In this document: in pieces, positions 27,472 through 33,756 of the stretch
Numbering within the stretch: position 1 is the first letter of the stretch
Layout: every line of letters starts with the position of its first letter
DNA from: a virus
Virus record (IMG/VR): IMGVR_UViG_3300020437_000020
Coordinates: 1-37,418 of that record
Direction: 5' to 3' (one strand)
Length of the DNA stretch: 37,418 nt
The notes under the pieces: model-generated
The model's database searches: none
What the model was told of the DNA's origin: nothing
Seen by the model: the letters and a program-made list of their open reading frames with translations, nothing else
Translations under genes and position numbers: made by a program

Positions 27472-28413
27472 ATGGCTAGTCTAAGCACAGCAGAACTTGC
27501 TAAAAGAAGTAATCTTGATATTTTCTTAAAAAGAATTAAAGGTGGTAAACCATTTACTACAGCGAACAATGGTGGAAAAACTGTAAAGATTCATAAGGAA
27601 TATGCTAACTTGATCAAGCAGGTTGGTCTTGAAGCTTTTAAAGATAAAAAAGGAACTATTTTATTTGAAACAGTAAACAAGTCATTCTCACTTCCTAACA
27701 CACCCAAGGGTCATGTTAGACTTAACCAACTGTATAAAGATTCTGAGTTTGCTGGAAGAACTCAAAAAACTACAAAAGCAGAGGATAAAGAAGTTGCTAG
27801 TTTAAATGAACAACTAGTAAAAATAATGGATTCAACTGGATATGATTATGTTAAAGTAAAGGTTGGAAAGAATACTTATACAGTTACATCTGTTACTAAA
27901 ACTAAAGGAATGCCAAAAGCTGACTTTAATTTTGTTGATACTAAAGGGAAAGCAGTAGGTTTTATATCTCATAAAGATGGTTCAAGTCCAAAAGGATTTC
28001 AACAATGGTCAGGTACATCACAACAAAACGCAAAAGAAATTTATAAACATAAAGAAACACAGGACTTTATTAATACCTTAAAAGGTATGTTTCCTACAGG
28101 AATGCCAAATGCAACAACTGTAGGTAGAAAAATAAGTAGTTCAAAACTTAAAAAAATGGCAGTCTATGGACAAGATGTAGGAAATGGGAGTACTGGAATT
28201 AATAATGTAGATCTTGTATTACAAGGACCAGTAAAATTAAAAAAAGTTGGATCTTACTATGAAGTAACTTCATCATTTAAACCAAGTGTAAGAGGTCAAT
28301 ATGAACCAATACTTTTAGCAGTATATAAAGGAGATAGAAGTGACCATGGAATTAAGGGTGCTAGAATAACTATAAATCCACTTGGCGGAAGAACAGTAAA
28401 GGAATATGTGTAA
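27472..28413 (+). CDS. Hypothetical protein with nuclease-like motif
   Basis: This is a 313-residue protein with no recognised family. In its middle, MPKAD151FNFVDTKG followed by GFISHK168DG resembles the strand-turn-strand of PD-(D/E)XK nucleases, with Ser at the usual Glu position (S166-H-K168). The rest is Lys-rich with Gly-bounded strands. It is followed by a ligase-like and a nucleotidyltransferase-like gene, which would suit a nucleic-acid end-processing role. The nuclease idea is tentative; the Ser substitution may mean an unusual or inactive site. Confidence 0.4.
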   Translation: MASLSTAELAKRSNLDIFLKRIKGGKPFTTANNGGKTVKIHKEYANLIKQVGLEAFKDKKGTILFETVNKSFSLPNTPKGHVRLNQLYKDSEFAGRTQKTTKAEDKEVASLNEQLVKIMDSTGYDYVKVKVGKNTYTVTSVTKTKGMPKADFNFVDTKGKAVGFISHKDGSSPKGFQQWSGTSQQNAKEIYKHKETQDFINTLKGMFPTGMPNATTVGRKISSSKLKKMAVYGQDVGNGSTGINNVDLVLQGPVKLKKVGSYYEVTSSFKPSVRGQYEPILLAVYKGDRSDHGIKGARITINPLGGRTVKEYV

Positions 28414-28419
28414 CACTAT

Positions 28420-28467
28420 ATAAAGTGTCCACTATCCCTGTACAAAGGTAATAGATGCTGCTATAAT
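28420..28467 (+). promoter_or_regulatory. Promoter with conserved upstream box
   Basis: The box ATAAAGTGTCCACT (28420-28433) is identical to that at 13688. After 5 nt comes TGTACA (28439-28444, 4/6 to -35), then a 17-nt spacer and TATAAT (28462-28467) preceded by TG (extended -10). The start near 28474 coincides with the ATG of the ligase-like gene, so the transcript may be leaderless or nearly so. Confidence 0.65.
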
Positions 28468-28473
28468 AAGGAT

Positions 28474-29652
28474 ATGAAAAATACCCACTTAGAGCATATA
28501 GAAGATGAGATCCTCAACAGAGGGTCTAAAGGTGGTAAAGATGTTATTGATTTTCTAGAGGATATCGGTAAGTTTCTTCATCAACGACCAAACGAAGTCA
28601 ACATCACTACCAAGTGGGATGGTGCACCTGCGATTATTTGTGGAACAGATCCTGAGACACAGAAGTTTTTTGTAGGCACCAAGTCAGTATTCAATAAAAC
28701 TAATGCTAAAGTATGCTATTCAGACGGTGACATTGACAACTATTATACTGGGCAACTTGCTTCTAAACTTAAAGCATGTCTTAGGCACCTTCCTAAACTG
28801 GATATTAAAGGGGTTGTCCAAGGTGATCTCCTTTTTACAAACGACAAAAAAATATTATCTATCGGCGGAGACAGAGTTATTAGTTTCACTCCTAATACTA
28901 TCACTTATACCATTCCTGTTGGTAGTTCTCTTTCTAAAAAGGTATCCAAGGCGGTATTGGGGATCGTATTTCATACGGAATATAGTGGTGACTCCCTATC
29001 TTCGATGGATGCAAAGTTTGGATTCAGACAGAATATTAAAGATCATAAAGATATTTTTGTACCCTCTGCGAATTTTACTGATTCTGTTGGTACTTCAAGG
29101 TTTAGCGCTATTGATCGGACTAAGTTTGCTTCGCTAGTTTCACGTTCTCGCGGATCTCTCAAGCAAGCATCAATCTTTTTAGATGCGATACAAAAGTCAG
29201 ACTATGCAATGCCAACAATATTCAAAAGGTTTTTCAACTCTTATGTTAGAGAAGGTAAGAAACTAAACAGTGCGACTGCTGTTGTTAATGACTTCTCTAG
29301 GTATTATGCTGCTGTTCTAGACAAAGAAGTTTCTTCTAAGAAGAGTAAATTAGGTAAGGATAAATATATACGTATCAAAACACTTGGTCTCAGGTTTATT
29401 GAGAAAAACCAAAGAAGCATTTATATGACAATTGCTTCTCACATGAACATTACTCAAGCAAAAAACTTTATTATTCGTAGACTTGAACGTGCAAAATCCA
29501 TTGGGACATTTGTTCGTATCAATAATGGATATAAAGTAACTACTCCTGAGGGGTTTGTTGCTATCAAGAATGGTCATGCCATCAAACTTGTAGATCGTTT
29601 TGAGTTCAGTAGAAACAATTTTACAGTAGCAAAAAACTGGGATAAGAAATGA
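28474..29652 (+). CDS. Nucleic-acid ligase-like covalent nucleotidyltransferase
   Basis: The 392-residue protein has the motifs of ATP-dependent ligases and capping enzymes. Motif I is K47-W-D-G-A-P, where Lys takes up AMP. Around 114-121 VVQGDLLF is in the place of the motif III/IIIa strand. IVFHTEY (164-170) fits motif IV, and EGFVAIKNG...IKLV (359-373) fits motif V with K371. The spacing between motifs is larger than in T4 RNA ligases because of a Lys-rich helical insert (about 210-345). The substrate, DNA or RNA, is unknown. It is the first gene behind a box-type promoter and overlaps the next gene by four bases. Confidence 0.65.
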   Translation: MKNTHLEHIEDEILNRGSKGGKDVIDFLEDIGKFLHQRPNEVNITTKWDGAPAIICGTDPETQKFFVGTKSVFNKTNAKVCYSDGDIDNYYTGQLASKLKACLRHLPKLDIKGVVQGDLLFTNDKKILSIGGDRVISFTPNTITYTIPVGSSLSKKVSKAVLGIVFHTEYSGDSLSSMDAKFGFRQNIKDHKDIFVPSANFTDSVGTSRFSAIDRTKFASLVSRSRGSLKQASIFLDAIQKSDYAMPTIFKRFFNSYVREGKKLNSATAVVNDFSRYYAAVLDKEVSSKKSKLGKDKYIRIKTLGLRFIEKNQRSIYMTIASHMNITQAKNFIIRRLERAKSIGTFVRINNGYKVTTPEGFVAIKNGHAIKLVDRFEFSRNNFTVAKNWDKK

Positions 29653-30785
29653 ATTTTGTTGATTTCATTAAAGAAGCAACAAGCACTGCATCTCAACAGG
29701 CAGCACGTCTGGGGTTGCAAGGGAATGGTCATGGCGATTGGTATGATAATAATGGAAAACTTGTAGCAAAAACTGTAAAAGGATCTCTGAAATTTTTTGG
29801 TAAGAAAAAGGGTGCTGGTGAAGATGAACCATCTGTTCCAAATAAAGATTCTGTTGTAGGACAAAAGATTCCTCATGATCAACAAGCACCTGAAGAACCT
29901 GCAGAAGATCAACCAACAAAAGGTCCTCTAACTATTGGATTTGGAAGATTCAATCCACCCACTGTTGGACATGAAGCACTATTAAAGACAATAAAGACAA
30001 CAGCAGCAGATGGTGAATATAAAGTATACCCATCTCATTCACAAGATTCTAAGAAAAATCCTTTAGATTCTGAAACTAAAGTTAGTTTCATGAAGGCAAT
30101 GTTCCCTGATCATGCAAACAATATTATTCATGATACAAAGATGCGTACAATCTTTGACGTTCTCAAGTCTGCATACGCTGATGGTCATAGTGAAGTAAAC
30201 ATTGTTGTAGGTGCTGATCGTAGATCAGAGTTTGAAAGTTTAGCAAACAAGTACAACGGACAACTTTACAATTTTGAAAATATTAATATTATTTCTGCAG
30301 GTAAAAGAGATCCTGATGCAGAAGGTGTTGAGGGTATGTCTGCATCTAAACTTCGTAAGGCAGCGATCGATGGTGACTTTGATACCTTTGTAAGTGGTAT
30401 ACCAAAACCATTAGATAAAAAGATGACTAAAGAATTGTATAATACAGTTCGTAGAAACATGGGTATTGAAGAAAGTTCACTTTGGCAGATTGCACCTAAG
30501 TTAGACTTCCTTAATTTAAGAGAAAACTTTGTTTCTGGAAACGTCTTTGGTGTTGGTGATTTGATTGAAAATTTAAATCATGGTTTGATGGGAAGGATCA
30601 TTCGTCAAGGTACAAATTATGTTATTGCTCTTACTAAAGAAGGCATGATGTTCAAGTCTTGGATCAAGGATATCAACGAAGTTCATGAGGTTGGCACCGA
30701 CTCCTATAGGGAATATGTACAGAGAATGACGCCTTATGAAAAAGTAAAGTCTTTTACAAGGATAAATAAAAATAAGAAGAAATAA
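29649..30785 (+). CDS. HIGH-type nucleotidyltransferase with N-terminal extension
   Basis: The 378-residue protein belongs to the NMNAT/cytidylyltransferase superfamily. GRFNPPTVGH (99-108) is the HxGH-type motif, VVGADRRSEF (187-196) a conserved core strand, and GMSASKLRKAA (229-239) the SxTxxR-type motif. Residues 1-50 form a separate small domain with GNGHGDWYD (25-33) and KTVKGSLKFFGKK, followed by a Pro/Glu linker. The C-terminal 110 residues are unassigned. Overlap with the ligase-like gene suggests that the two work together, for example in NAD or RNA-end chemistry (inference). Confidence 0.65.
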   Translation: MNFVDFIKEATSTASQQAARLGLQGNGHGDWYDNNGKLVAKTVKGSLKFFGKKKGAGEDEPSVPNKDSVVGQKIPHDQQAPEEPAEDQPTKGPLTIGFGRFNPPTVGHEALLKTIKTTAADGEYKVYPSHSQDSKKNPLDSETKVSFMKAMFPDHANNIIHDTKMRTIFDVLKSAYADGHSEVNIVVGADRRSEFESLANKYNGQLYNFENINIISAGKRDPDAEGVEGMSASKLRKAAIDGDFDTFVSGIPKPLDKKMTKELYNTVRRNMGIEESSLWQIAPKLDFLNLRENFVSGNVFGVGDLIENLNHGLMGRIIRQGTNYVIALTKEGMMFKSWIKDINEVHEVGTDSYREYVQRMTPYEKVKSFTRINKNKKK

Positions 30786-30804
30786 AGTATTATTGAATTT
30801 AGCT

Positions 30805-33756
30805 ATGTCTAATCCATTTTCGGAAGCATTTGGGCAGTTAAGAAACCCCTATCTCCAAGAAGAACTACCCCCACGTAAGAATAAAGGTAAGGCACCTGCT
30901 GGATCATCTCCTGCTCCTGCTGCAGCATCTGCTGATCAGGGTGGTGGATCTGAGAAAAAAATTAAGCAAGCAGTCTATGATATTAGATATAGAGCAAGAA
31001 GAGAAGACGTTGAATTAGATAAGGCATTTTCCCAGTACATGTCAAACACTAATATGAGTGCCATGGAAAAGAAGGCAGTGAGAGGAAAACTCTTTGGTGA
31101 ATCAAAGATTTATAATTCTAACCCATTCCGTCAAGCGTTTGCTGAACTTAGAGCTCCTATTCTTGGTGAAGAAATTAAAGATGGTAAAGAGAAAGTAAGA
31201 GTTACAGATAGAAGTGGTAAGTCTTATGTTAGATATGCAGATCAAAGTAAGAAGTCTGAACTTCGCCAGAATCCAAATGTTCAGTCAGTAAACCCAACTG
31301 ATCATGGTGTACCATATGAAGGAGAGAAGAAGAAGGGAGAGTATACTGCAAAAGTAAAAGCAGGTAAAAAATTAGATCCAGTTGGTAAGGCAGATGCTGA
31401 TATTGACAATGATGGTGACGTAGATAAGTCAGACAAGTATTTACATAATCGTCGTAAGGCAATAGGTAAGGCGATTAAGGGTAAAATGAAGGAAGATCTT
31501 GATACTTCTAGTGAAGAGATTACCGAGATCATGGGTAATACTAGCAACAATCCAAAGATATCTCCTAAGAAAGGTATTAAAAATACTGTGAAGATTAATC
31601 CTGACTTAGGTGAAAGTGTCATTAAATTAGAAGATGTAGATGTTGTTGATCTTTCAGATTTCCAAGAGAAAATGACTGGTGCTGAGATTGATAAGAAAGA
31701 AGATATCGTCAAAGGGATGAAGAAGAACTTTGCTGATATGAAGTCTCGCTATGGTTCTCGTGCAAAAGAAGTTATGTATGCAACTGCTACTAAGATGGCA
31801 ATGAAGGATCACTGGGATCCTGAGCATGTAGAACCTCTTGTTGAAAAGAAAGAAGAAGAGAAGAAAGAAAAGTCTTGTGCTATGGATAAGGAAATAACAC
31901 CAGACATGTCATCAGGAGAAGTTGCAACTCGAATGAATCTCAAAAGAAATAAGTTGAGAGCAATGGGTCTTAAGATGGGATTTGATCCAAGTGAAGAAGT
32001 TGATGAAGCATTACACCCTAACGTAGCAAGAAATGATGCAATCAACAGAGAAAGGGCAATGAAGGCTGCAAAGGAGAGACAAGCAAAGAAACCTTCTCCT
32101 GATGTAATTGCTGCTAGAAAACGTCAGTACAGTGCAGGTAAACCAGGTGCTGCACCTTATACTACTGCTGACAAAAAGAAAGTTATTGGATCTTATAAGG
32201 AACATCATGAGAAAGATGCTGATGGTAAAGTTATTGAGCATCCAATAGAAGACGAAAAAAAAAATCCAGTTGACACCACACCATCTTCAGTAAATGAGGA
32301 AGGATATGATCATGCAAGAGATATGGGAAAGGTAAAACCATCTAAGGATAAGAAAGATGGAACCTCATATCCACCAAGTGAAGAAATGAAAAAGACACAG
32401 AAGGTAAACAAAGGACCTTCTGCATTTGAACGTGTGAAAAAGAAGTATGGCAAGTCTGTTATGAAGATGAAAGAAGAGGTACAATTAGATGAAAAGGTTG
32501 GTGGTAAAGGCACTCTAGTCAGACAAGGTGTTAAGATTGGTGGAAAAAAAGGTGGTCAAATGGTTCAGAAAGGAACTACTGCTGCCACTGCTAAAGGTAA
32601 AGATGTAGTAAAAACTGCATCAAAGGGTAAAGCAGGTGCAGGTAAATGGGAAAGGAGAGGTGCTGGTGCTGGTGCTGCTCTTGGAGGTGCTGCTGGAATT
32701 GCAATTCCTGATGGTCCTTTAATGGTTGCTGGTGAACTTGCTGGTGGTTATGCAGGTTCTAAAGTTGGTGGTAAGATTGGTAGACAGTTTGATAAGATGG
32801 GTGCAAAGAAAAAAATAAAAGAAGAGATGCAATTACTTGATGAAGGTATAAGATTAAAAAGTAAAGAGGAATTCATCAAAGGGTGGAAAAATGTTGGAAA
32901 AAAAATAATGGGTACAAAAGATAAGATAGTAAAACAAGCAAAGGAAAACACACCTGGTTCAGGAAAGGATTATAGTTGGAAAAACAGTAAGGGAGAAAAA
33001 CCAGGAGTTAACTTAGGACTTAGTAAAAATGTTGACATTACAAAAGACGGACCAACTAAAGTAGTAAAACAAATTGCTAAAGACAAAGTAGTTACTCCAG
33101 CAAAAGATGCTATAGTAGATGCTGTTAAAAAACATGGTGTGAAAGCAGGTGTTGCTGGTGCAGCTGCATTGGGCGGTGTTGCATTAGCAAAAAGACTAGC
33201 GAAAAAGAGTGATGATAAAAAGGATAAAAAGGAAAGTTTCTCAAACTGGAGAGATGAACTATCAAGAGAACATGAAGATCTTAATGAGGTACTTGGAGCA
33301 GCCACAGGTGCTGGAATAGGTATTGCTGCTGCAGGTAGTAAAAAAGGAATAGAATTACTAACAAAAGCAGGTCTTAAAAACCCAATAGCACAAAAAGCAG
33401 CTGCAGGTGCAGTTGGTGGAGCAGCAGGTGAAGTTCTAGATCCTACTAAAAAGGGAAAGGATAAGAAACCATTAACAGCAGCAGCACTAGGTGGACTTGG
33501 TGGTGCAGTAGCAGGTGGTGGAATAGGTGCAGCATCAGAGAAGATAAACCAAGAACTTGCTAAGAAGGCAGCGAAGACTGTTAAGAAAGAAGAAGTTGAA
33601 CAAGTTGATGAAGGAATTGGAGAAACCATAGGAAACTTTATTAAACTTGCTAAAAACAAAGCTCATAAAGTATCAACCAAAACACCTATGGGTAAAGCAG
33701 TTACTGGAATACAAAAACGTACTCAAGCGAACAATGCAGCTGCTGCTGGTATGTAA
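30805..33756 (+). CDS. Large Lys/Gly-rich protein with EF-hand loop, probably virion-associated
   Basis: The 983-residue product is of unknown function. An N-terminal repeat unit SNPFxxAFxxLRxPxLxEE occurs at 2-19 and again at 105-122. A perfect EF-hand/dockerin-like calcium loop lies at 199-210 (D199, D201, D203, G204, V206, D207, D210). The rest is Lys/Glu-rich and low in hydrophobics. Three Gly/Ala-rich, glycine-zipper-like patches (about 609-665, 781-799, 828-919) could insert into membranes. Repeated KEEVxxxDE-type short segments appear before the patches. These traits fit an internal or ejected virion protein (inference). ATG 30805 is preferred over an upstream TTG. Confidence 0.55.
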   Translation: MSNPFSEAFGQLRNPYLQEELPPRKNKGKAPAGSSPAPAAASADQGGGSEKKIKQAVYDIRYRARREDVELDKAFSQYMSNTNMSAMEKKAVRGKLFGESKIYNSNPFRQAFAELRAPILGEEIKDGKEKVRVTDRSGKSYVRYADQSKKSELRQNPNVQSVNPTDHGVPYEGEKKKGEYTAKVKAGKKLDPVGKADADIDNDGDVDKSDKYLHNRRKAIGKAIKGKMKEDLDTSSEEITEIMGNTSNNPKISPKKGIKNTVKINPDLGESVIKLEDVDVVDLSDFQEKMTGAEIDKKEDIVKGMKKNFADMKSRYGSRAKEVMYATATKMAMKDHWDPEHVEPLVEKKEEEKKEKSCAMDKEITPDMSSGEVATRMNLKRNKLRAMGLKMGFDPSEEVDEALHPNVARNDAINRERAMKAAKERQAKKPSPDVIAARKRQYSAGKPGAAPYTTADKKKVIGSYKEHHEKDADGKVIEHPIEDEKKNPVDTTPSSVNEEGYDHARDMGKVKPSKDKKDGTSYPPSEEMKKTQKVNKGPSAFERVKKKYGKSVMKMKEEVQLDEKVGGKGTLVRQGVKIGGKKGGQMVQKGTTAATAKGKDVVKTASKGKAGAGKWERRGAGAGAALGGAAGIAIPDGPLMVAGELAGGYAGSKVGGKIGRQFDKMGAKKKIKEEMQLLDEGIRLKSKEEFIKGWKNVGKKIMGTKDKIVKQAKENTPGSGKDYSWKNSKGEKPGVNLGLSKNVDITKDGPTKVVKQIAKDKVVTPAKDAIVDAVKKHGVKAGVAGAAALGGVALAKRLAKKSDDKKDKKESFSNWRDELSREHEDLNEVLGAATGAGIGIAAAGSKKGIELLTKAGLKNPIAQKAAAGAVGGAAGEVLDPTKKGKDKKPLTAAALGGLGGAVAGGGIGAASEKINQELAKKAAKTVKKEEVEQVDEGIGETIGNFIKLAKNKAHKVSTKTPMGKAVTGIQKRTQANNAAAAGM

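What the first reader, a model, noticed from the sequence alone, without database searches (positions are those of the whole stretch)
27472..30785. Nuclease-like, ligase-like and nucleotidyltransferase-like gene cassette
Three adjacent genes carry, in order, a D...SHK nuclease-like motif, a KWDG covalent ligase site with motifs III-V, and a HIGH-type nucleotidyltransferase with its own N-terminal domain. The last two overlap by four bases and share a box-type promoter. None is a known T4 replication gene. Together they could form an undescribed nucleic-acid end-processing or repair system, or one acting on NAD or RNA caps.
Basis: partly seen in the sequence, partly recalled or inferred. Interest (0 to 1): 0.62.

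Follow-up and report, generated by a model that had tools for sequence, protein, structure and literature searches.

The report
Capsid-targeted enzyme cluster of marine cyanophages
A marine T4-like phage carries a conserved gene cluster for a nuclease-like, a ligase-like and a nucleotide-transferring enzyme, and the last one bears the tag that loads proteins into the phage head, so it is probably injected into the host together with the DNA.

Summary
Three intact genes lie at 27472-30785 in a cyanophage (Kyanoviridae) contig, and the last two overlap by ATGA. Gene 1 is nuclease-like: restriction-endonuclease family match (PADLOC E 7e-12) and a HinP1I-like predicted fold with D151...S166-H-K168. 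Gene 2 is Pfam DUF6267. Its predicted fold matches ATP-dependent RNA/DNA ligases, and K47-x-DG, D118, E359G and K371 are invariant in 44 diverse relatives. Gene 3 is a HIGH-motif nucleotidyltransferase, the cyanophage-core 'cytidylyltransferase' T4-GC190. The claimed shared promoter is not supported.

The motif finds only ipII and ipIII in T4. It is on 195 of 200 cyanophage relatives of gene 3, and on 77 of 84 DUF6267 proteins in a distant phage group where the transferase mostly lacks it. Published virion proteomes of four cyanophages contain gene-3 homologues; in S-SCSM1 seven of nine clustered genes were detected.

Best reading: a capsid-cargo locus whose transferase is injected with the DNA, flanked by a ligase-fold adenylyltransferase and a variable nuclease. 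Packaging of the transferase is well supported. Substrates and joint end-repair are inferred. DUF6267 packaging here is unproven.

The parts
27472..28413 (+). Gene 1: 313-aa nuclease-like protein (phrog_13937). Residues 1-91 predicted as a small barrel, residues 95-306 as a PD-(D/E)XK-like domain
   Evidence: PADLOC REase_II E 7e-12; AF2 pLDDT 89.8, HinP1I Z 6.0 over 165 residues, then DpnI, Hjc, EcoRV
27922..27975 (+). Putative active site of gene 1: D151 ... S166-H167-K168
   Evidence: invariant in 29 relatives; positions
28474..29652 (+). Gene 2: 392-aa DUF6267 (PF19782), ligase-fold covalent nucleotidyltransferase-like
   Evidence: Pfam E 2e-127; AF2 pLDDT 90.6; best matches are RNA/DNA ligases, NgrRnl Z 8.4, TbREL1 7.6, T4 Rnl2 6.9
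28612..28623 (+). Motif I K47-W-D-G, candidate AMP-accepting lysine
   Evidence: K, D and G invariant in 44/44
29548..29586 (+). Motifs IV (E359-G-F-V) and V (K371-L-V-D) of gene 2
   Evidence: E359, G360, V362, K371 invariant in 44/44
29649..30785 (+). Gene 3: 378-aa HIGH-type nucleotidyltransferase, cyanophage 'cytidylyltransferase' (phrog_395, T4-GC190 family)
   Evidence: PF01467 E 6e-5; phrog_395 E 3e-103; P-SSM2_194 (T4-GC190) matches at E 5e-109
29649..29678 (+). Capsid-targeting-like sequence MNFVDFIKE|A with predicted prohead-protease cut after E9
   Evidence: only strict hit in the window; same motif in 122/127 and 73/73 cyanophage homologues
29940..29975 (+). HIGH-type motif FGRFNPPTVGHE (residues 98-109)
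   Evidence: F98, G99, R100, N102, P103, P104, T105, G107, H108 conserved in at least 90%
30333..30356 (+). GMSASKLR (residues 229-236), the ISxTxxR-like second motif
   Evidence: conserved in at least 90%
30793..33756 (+). 987-aa downstream protein of the same cluster; its counterpart in S-SCSM1 is a virion protein
   Evidence: phmmer matches in most loci; SSCSM1_92 match E 6e-14, annotated virion protein

Best explanation
This is a late capsid-cargo locus of T4-like aquatic phages. The HIGH-type nucleotidyltransferase is drawn into the prohead by its N-terminal capsid-targeting sequence, trimmed after E9 by the prohead protease, and injected with the DNA. In the host it would transfer a nucleotide (probably AMP) to a small or nucleic-acid substrate from the first moments of infection. 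Its partner DUF6267 is a ligase-fold enzyme that would form a Lys47-AMP intermediate and adenylylate or seal nucleic-acid ends. The gene before it encodes a restriction-endonuclease-fold nuclease. The set most likely acts on nucleic-acid ends or on restriction and tRNA-cleavage damage early in infection. Shown: gene order, motifs, predicted folds, targeting motif, published virion detection of homologues. Inferred: injection, substrates, joint action, and packaging of DUF6267 in this phage.
For: Strict targeting motif: exactly two hits in all of T4, ipII and ipIII. The published CTS has its targeting residues at positions 4 and 7 and processing residues at 8 and 10 (PMC9026906). 203 cyanophage homologues have F..F[LIV].E, with A next in 182. 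The carrier swaps: transferase 122/127 and 73/73 in cyanophage groups with DUF6267 0/83 and 0/78; DUF6267 77/84 in the DLP6-like group with transferase 3/50. Virion mass spectrometry of homologues: S-SM1 (PMC3037559), S-SCSM1 (PMC9602691), S-SZBM1 (PMC9146016), S-CREM2 (PMC10665884). The last three all begin with the motif. In S-SCSM1, 7 of 9 cluster genes are virion proteins, against 1 of 40 replication genes before it and 0 of 85 after it. Late promoter TATAAATA before the transferase in 37/50 DLP6-like loci, 0.014 expected per locus. Ligase fold, nuclease fold and family, invariant active sites.
Against: DUF6267 has no targeting sequence in this phage, and neither it nor the upstream protein is in the S-SZBM1 virion list. 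The authors of two proteomes say the transferase could be a co-purified contaminant. The fold matches are middling (Z 8.4 and 6.0) and Foldseek gave nothing at E below 0.001. Profile comparison of DUF6267 with narrow T4 Rnl2 and gp30 sets found no sequence relationship. The exact gene-1 family is in only 23 phage records. No late box lies before gene 2 or 3 in this window.
Confidence: 0.6

Rival explanations
1. The transferase is an NMN adenylyltransferase that raises host NAD, and its neighbours are functionally unrelated.
For: Weak matches to NMN/nicotinate adenylyltransferase models (TIGR00482 E 0.004; phrog_3462 E 2e-4 for HTVC008M); the authors of the proteomes favour this.
Against: All matches are far below the curated cut-offs. 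Tight linkage to DUF6267 in three phage groups and PHROG 455 spanning both proteins suggest a partner role. The transferase may itself be an NMNAT, so this overlaps the main reading.
Confidence: 0.3
2. The transferase is a late, abundant cytoplasmic enzyme that merely sticks to purified virions; the N-terminal motif is a chance resemblance.
For: Authors' caveat; few peptides in S-SZBM1 (2) and S-CREM2 (3).
Against: Four independent proteomes; only the cluster and the structural genes are detected in the S-SCSM1 stretches examined, besides RegA; the motif is specific in T4 and rare in other window-like + strand ORFs (1/824).
Confidence: 0.12
3. DUF6267 keeps the ligase fold but adenylylates a protein or small molecule, or is a helper of the transferase, and does not seal nucleic acid.
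For: Motif III has D in place of E; the first lysine of motif V is missing (A369); a helical insertion splits the core. An 82-aa piece of this helical part alone persists between gene 1 and gene 3 in about ten loci, which hints at a binding role.
Against: Catalytic lysine, motif IV glutamate and motif V lysine are invariant, also in the shortened 298-aa form; nearest folds are RNA ligases.
Confidence: 0.3
4. Gene 1 is a catalytically dead or purely DNA-binding restriction-fold protein.
For: S166 stands where PD-(D/E)XK nucleases usually have D or E.
Against: D151, S166, K168, E104 and Q178 are invariant; unlike proteins in the same slot keep D...SxK or D...ExK.
Confidence: 0.3

Closest known systems
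Phage T4 internal head proteins IPI, IPII, IPIII and Alt
   Same: N-terminal F..F[IL].E propeptide with L/I-x-E prohead-protease site; late expression; presence in purified virions of relatives
   Different: Cargo here is a HIGH-type nucleotidyltransferase and, in distant relatives, DUF6267 and nucleases, enzymes not reported as T4 internal proteins
Rnl2/Rnl5/REL-type ATP-dependent RNA ligases
   Same: Motifs I, IV, V in order; predicted fold (NgrRnl Z 8.4, TbREL1 7.6, T4 Rnl2 6.9)
   Different: No detectable sequence similarity; helical insertion between motifs III and IV; QGD motif III; a single lysine in motif V
Cyanophage cytidylyltransferase / NMNAT-like virion protein (T4-GC190)
   Same: Gene 3 is a member; core gene of T4-like cyanophages and known virion protein
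   Different: The targeting sequence and the DUF6267 link were not found described in the papers searched
HinP1I-type PD-(D/E)XK restriction endonucleases
   Same: Predicted fold of residues 95-306; REase_II family hit
   Different: SxK in place of (D/E)xK; extra N-terminal barrel; no methylase partner in this cluster

Membership tests
T4-type capsid-targeted internal head protein (gene 3) | N-terminal targeting sequence with aromatic residues at the two targeting positions and an (L/I)-x-E protease site | tested here: met
   MNFVDFIKE|A; T4 control ipII and ipIII only; 195/200 cyanophage homologues
T4-type capsid-targeted internal head protein (gene 3) | Present in purified virions | tested here: inconclusive
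   Published for homologues in four cyanophages; not for this phage
T4-type capsid-targeted internal head protein (gene 3) | Cleavage by the prohead protease and injection | not testable with these tools
   needs N-terminal mass spectrometry and infection assays
T4-type capsid-targeted internal head protein (gene 2, this phage) | N-terminal targeting sequence | tested here: not met
   starts MKNTHLEH; 0/83 in window-like loci
Covalent nucleotidyltransferase / polynucleotide ligase superfamily (gene 2) | KxDG with invariant lysine, motif IV EG, motif V lysine in order | tested here: met
   44/44
Covalent nucleotidyltransferase / polynucleotide ligase superfamily (gene 2) | Ligase adenylation fold | tested here: met
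   nearly all of the top 24 structural matches are RNA/DNA ligases, best Z 8.4, rmsd 3.8, 179 residues; middling Z
Covalent nucleotidyltransferase / polynucleotide ligase superfamily (gene 2) | Lysine adenylylation and end sealing | not testable with these tools
   biochemistry
T4 gp30 DNA ligase or T4 Rnl2 (gene 2) | Sequence-level homology | tested here: inconclusive
   no significant profile match, but the profiles were narrow
PD-(D/E)XK nuclease superfamily (gene 1) | Restriction-endonuclease fold | tested here: met
   HinP1I Z 6.0 over 165 residues plus other members; REase_II E 7e-12
PD-(D/E)XK nuclease superfamily (gene 1) | D ... (D/E)-x-K signature | tested here: inconclusive
   D151 ... 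S-x-K, serine in place of D/E
HIGH-superfamily nucleotidyltransferase (gene 3) | (H/G)xGH motif and ISxTxxR-like motif | tested here: met
NMN adenylyltransferase (gene 3) | Score above the curated family cut-off | tested here: not met
   TIGR00482 17 bits against a cut-off of 112

The most novel reading that the evidence does not exclude
The three proteins work as one complex, brought into the capsid by whichever member carries the targeting sequence, and delivered with the genome as a nucleic-acid end-processing kit (cut, adenylylate, seal) against host nucleases.
Probability: 0.2. Interest if true: 0.8.

Novelty: new variant of a known kind. Interest (0 to 1): 0.6.

Why it matters
T4-GC190 is a core gene of T4-like cyanophages, found in virions since 2010 without a role. 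A targeting sequence explains why it is in the head and predicts an exact cut site. It also gives DUF6267, a domain without a function that is present in nearly all T4-like cyanophages, a testable enzyme class. If the transferase is injected, it joins the few known phage enzymes that act before any phage gene is expressed, in one of the most abundant virus groups in the ocean.

Tried and rejected
Shared box promoter of genes 2 and 3: not supported. S-SCSM1_180 'DNA ligase' as a short DUF6267: no profile match. DUF6267 against T4 Rnl2 and gp30 by profile comparison: nothing significant. Common ancestry of the different upstream-slot proteins: only motif-length matches (slot0-slot1 E 4e-4), and a loose D...SxK regex hit 71/184 in the largest slot cluster against 28/184 after shuffling and 32/582 in background ORFs, so the motif is suggestive there, not proven. 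Excess of prohead-protease sites in the 987-aa protein: z 1.4, not significant. True gene fusions of DUF6267 and transferase: none in 381 loci; PHROG 455 spans both. DUF6267 in cells: 34 loci in GTDB genomes, nearly all in metagenome-assembled contigs. Foldseek for both models: no match at E below 0.001. No paper in the held library names DUF6267 or PF19782.
Full report
Observation. The window is itself a 37,418-base virus record from a T4-like cyanophage; the closest annotated relatives are Synechococcus phages. Genes 2 and 3 overlap by ATGA. The shared promoter is not supported: the only box, TATAATAA at 28462-28469, lies four bases before the ATG and recurs at four other places in the window.

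Gene 1. No Pfam match, but PADLOC's type II restriction enzyme model matches residues 136-268 at E 7e-12. The predicted structure (pLDDT 89.8) has no Foldseek match at E below 0.001. In the VIA-align second look, residues 95-306 align to HinP1I (Z 6.0, 165 residues, rmsd 4.1), followed by DpnI, Hjc, DrdV, EcoRV and BstEII, while residues 1-91 align to PAZ and tudor-like barrels. D151, S166, H167, K168, E104 and Q178 are invariant in 29 relatives. I read it as a PD-(D/E)XK-fold nuclease with a serine variant of the E-x-K motif. Activity is not shown.

Gene 2. It is a full-length DUF6267 (E 2e-127), found in 470 of 50,697 phage records, nearly all cyanophages, and in 34 loci of GTDB genomes, nearly all metagenome-assembled. 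The model (pLDDT 90.6) gave no Foldseek match at E below 0.001. In VIA-align, however, nearly all of the top 24 rows are ATP-dependent RNA or DNA ligases: Naegleria Rnl Z 8.4, T. brucei REL1 7.6, T4 Rnl2 6.9. A Z near 8 alone is middling. The agreement of the whole list, together with invariant K47, D49, G50, D118, E359, G360 and K371 in order, makes the ligase fold likely. A helical insertion (about residues 185-340) splits the core, and the 298-aa form in many cyanophages shortens it while keeping the catalytic residues.

Gene 3. It is a HIGH-type nucleotidyltransferase (PF01467 E 6e-5; phrog_395 E 3e-103). NMN adenylyltransferase models match only weakly. It belongs to the T4-GC190 family (P-SSM2_194), a core gene of T4-like cyanophages (PMC3037559).

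Capsid targeting. Gene 3 starts MNFVDFIKE|A. T4's capsid-targeting sequence is MKTYQEFIAE|A, with targeting at residues 4 and 7 and processing at 8 and 10, and the protease cuts after L/I-x-E (PMC9026906). A strict pattern run over all ORFs of at least 60 aa in T4 found only ipII and ipIII. In the Stenotrophomonas phage DLP6 it found DUF6267, a small ORF in the gp67 position, and two antisense ORFs. In the window it found only gene 3. Across the loci: transferase 122/127 (window-like) and 73/73 (short-form cyanophage); DUF6267 0/83 and 0/78 in those groups; in the DLP6-like group DUF6267 77/84 and transferase 3/50; other + strand ORFs in window-like loci 1/824. So the member of the pair that carries the signal differs between lineages. 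Counts of related sequences are not independent, and the HTVC-like group has only shortened forms (DUF6267 5/80, transferase 0/59).

Virion evidence. Homologues were detected by mass spectrometry in S-SM1, S-SCSM1, S-SZBM1 and S-CREM2. The three I could read start MKSFLQFLKE|A, MRFRQFIIE|A and MKNFSSFLTE|A. In S-SCSM1 seven of nine genes SSCSM1_89-97 are annotated as virion proteins, against one of 40 (RegA) in the replication region before and none of 85 after. That argues against random contamination, which the authors could not exclude. In S-SZBM1 neither DUF6267 (S-SZBM1_141, no targeting sequence) nor the upstream protein is in the virion list.

Late expression. TATAAATA, the T4 late promoter, lies within 120 nt upstream of the transferase in 37 of 50 DLP6-like loci (0.014 expected per locus). 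NATAAATA lies before 53 of 128 window-like transferases (0.037 expected). The window itself lacks it before genes 2 and 3.

Linkage. Transferase adjacent to DUF6267: 78/81 and 76/80 in the two cyanophage groups; within 2 kb in 58/80 HTVC-like loci; looser in the DLP6-like group, with 8 loci lacking it despite at least 3 kb of flank. The gene-1 family is adjacent in 32 loci, and other loci have different proteins in that slot, several with D...SxK or E-x-K motifs. That part is suggestive only: the loose motif occurs in 71/184 of the largest slot cluster against 28/184 after shuffling.

Mechanism. Most likely the transferase is loaded into the prohead, trimmed and injected, and acts before phage transcription. 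DUF6267, a ligase-fold enzyme, and the nuclease are expressed with it and probably act on nucleic-acid ends. Which substrates they use, whether they form a complex, and whether DUF6267 is packaged without its own signal are open.

Verdict. Virion presence of gene 3 was already known; the targeting sequence, its exchange between partners and the ligase fold of DUF6267 are additions I did not find in the papers searched.

Noticed in passing
L118, L120, L126-L132 (e.g. L127:3276-3524): An 82-aa ORF between gene 1 and the transferase matches only profile positions 247-320 of DUF6267, the helical part, without the ligase core.
   Followed up: partly
L141-L220, e.g. L150:4396-5001, L186:4447-5001, L210:3863-4708, L173:4204-5001: Near DUF6267 in DLP6-like phages, 64 of 541 other + strand ORFs also start with a capsid-targeting-like sequence; by eye they include HAD-like, HD/SpoT-like, AAA kinase-like and nuclease-like proteins. 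It looks like an island of capsid cargo.
   Followed up: partly
L381:12490-12747 (DLP6 AAY80_013): ORF annotated as holin lies in the gp67 position between portal and prohead protease and starts MSQKTYNDLINE|V; likely a head core protein.
   Followed up: no
L137:6718-7380 (HTVC008M): Zeta-toxin/AAA kinase-like gene (PF06414 E 3e-13) between DUF6267 and the transferase.
   Followed up: no
window:30793-33756: 987-aa low-complexity protein with repeated NPF..AF..LR.P and D.DNDGD..K stretches; its S-SCSM1 relative is a virion protein.
   Followed up: partly
window:6272-7555: Tryptophan-halogenase-like gene (phrog_2928, E 6e-70).
   Followed up: no
L389:8736-9362 (S-PRM1): Only strict capsid-targeting hit in S-PRM1, MKTYNQFVLE|A, a hypothetical protein; the S-PRM1 transferase itself is annotated from a GTG start as VSFFKKVRTILEG and does not match the strict pattern.
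   Followed up: no
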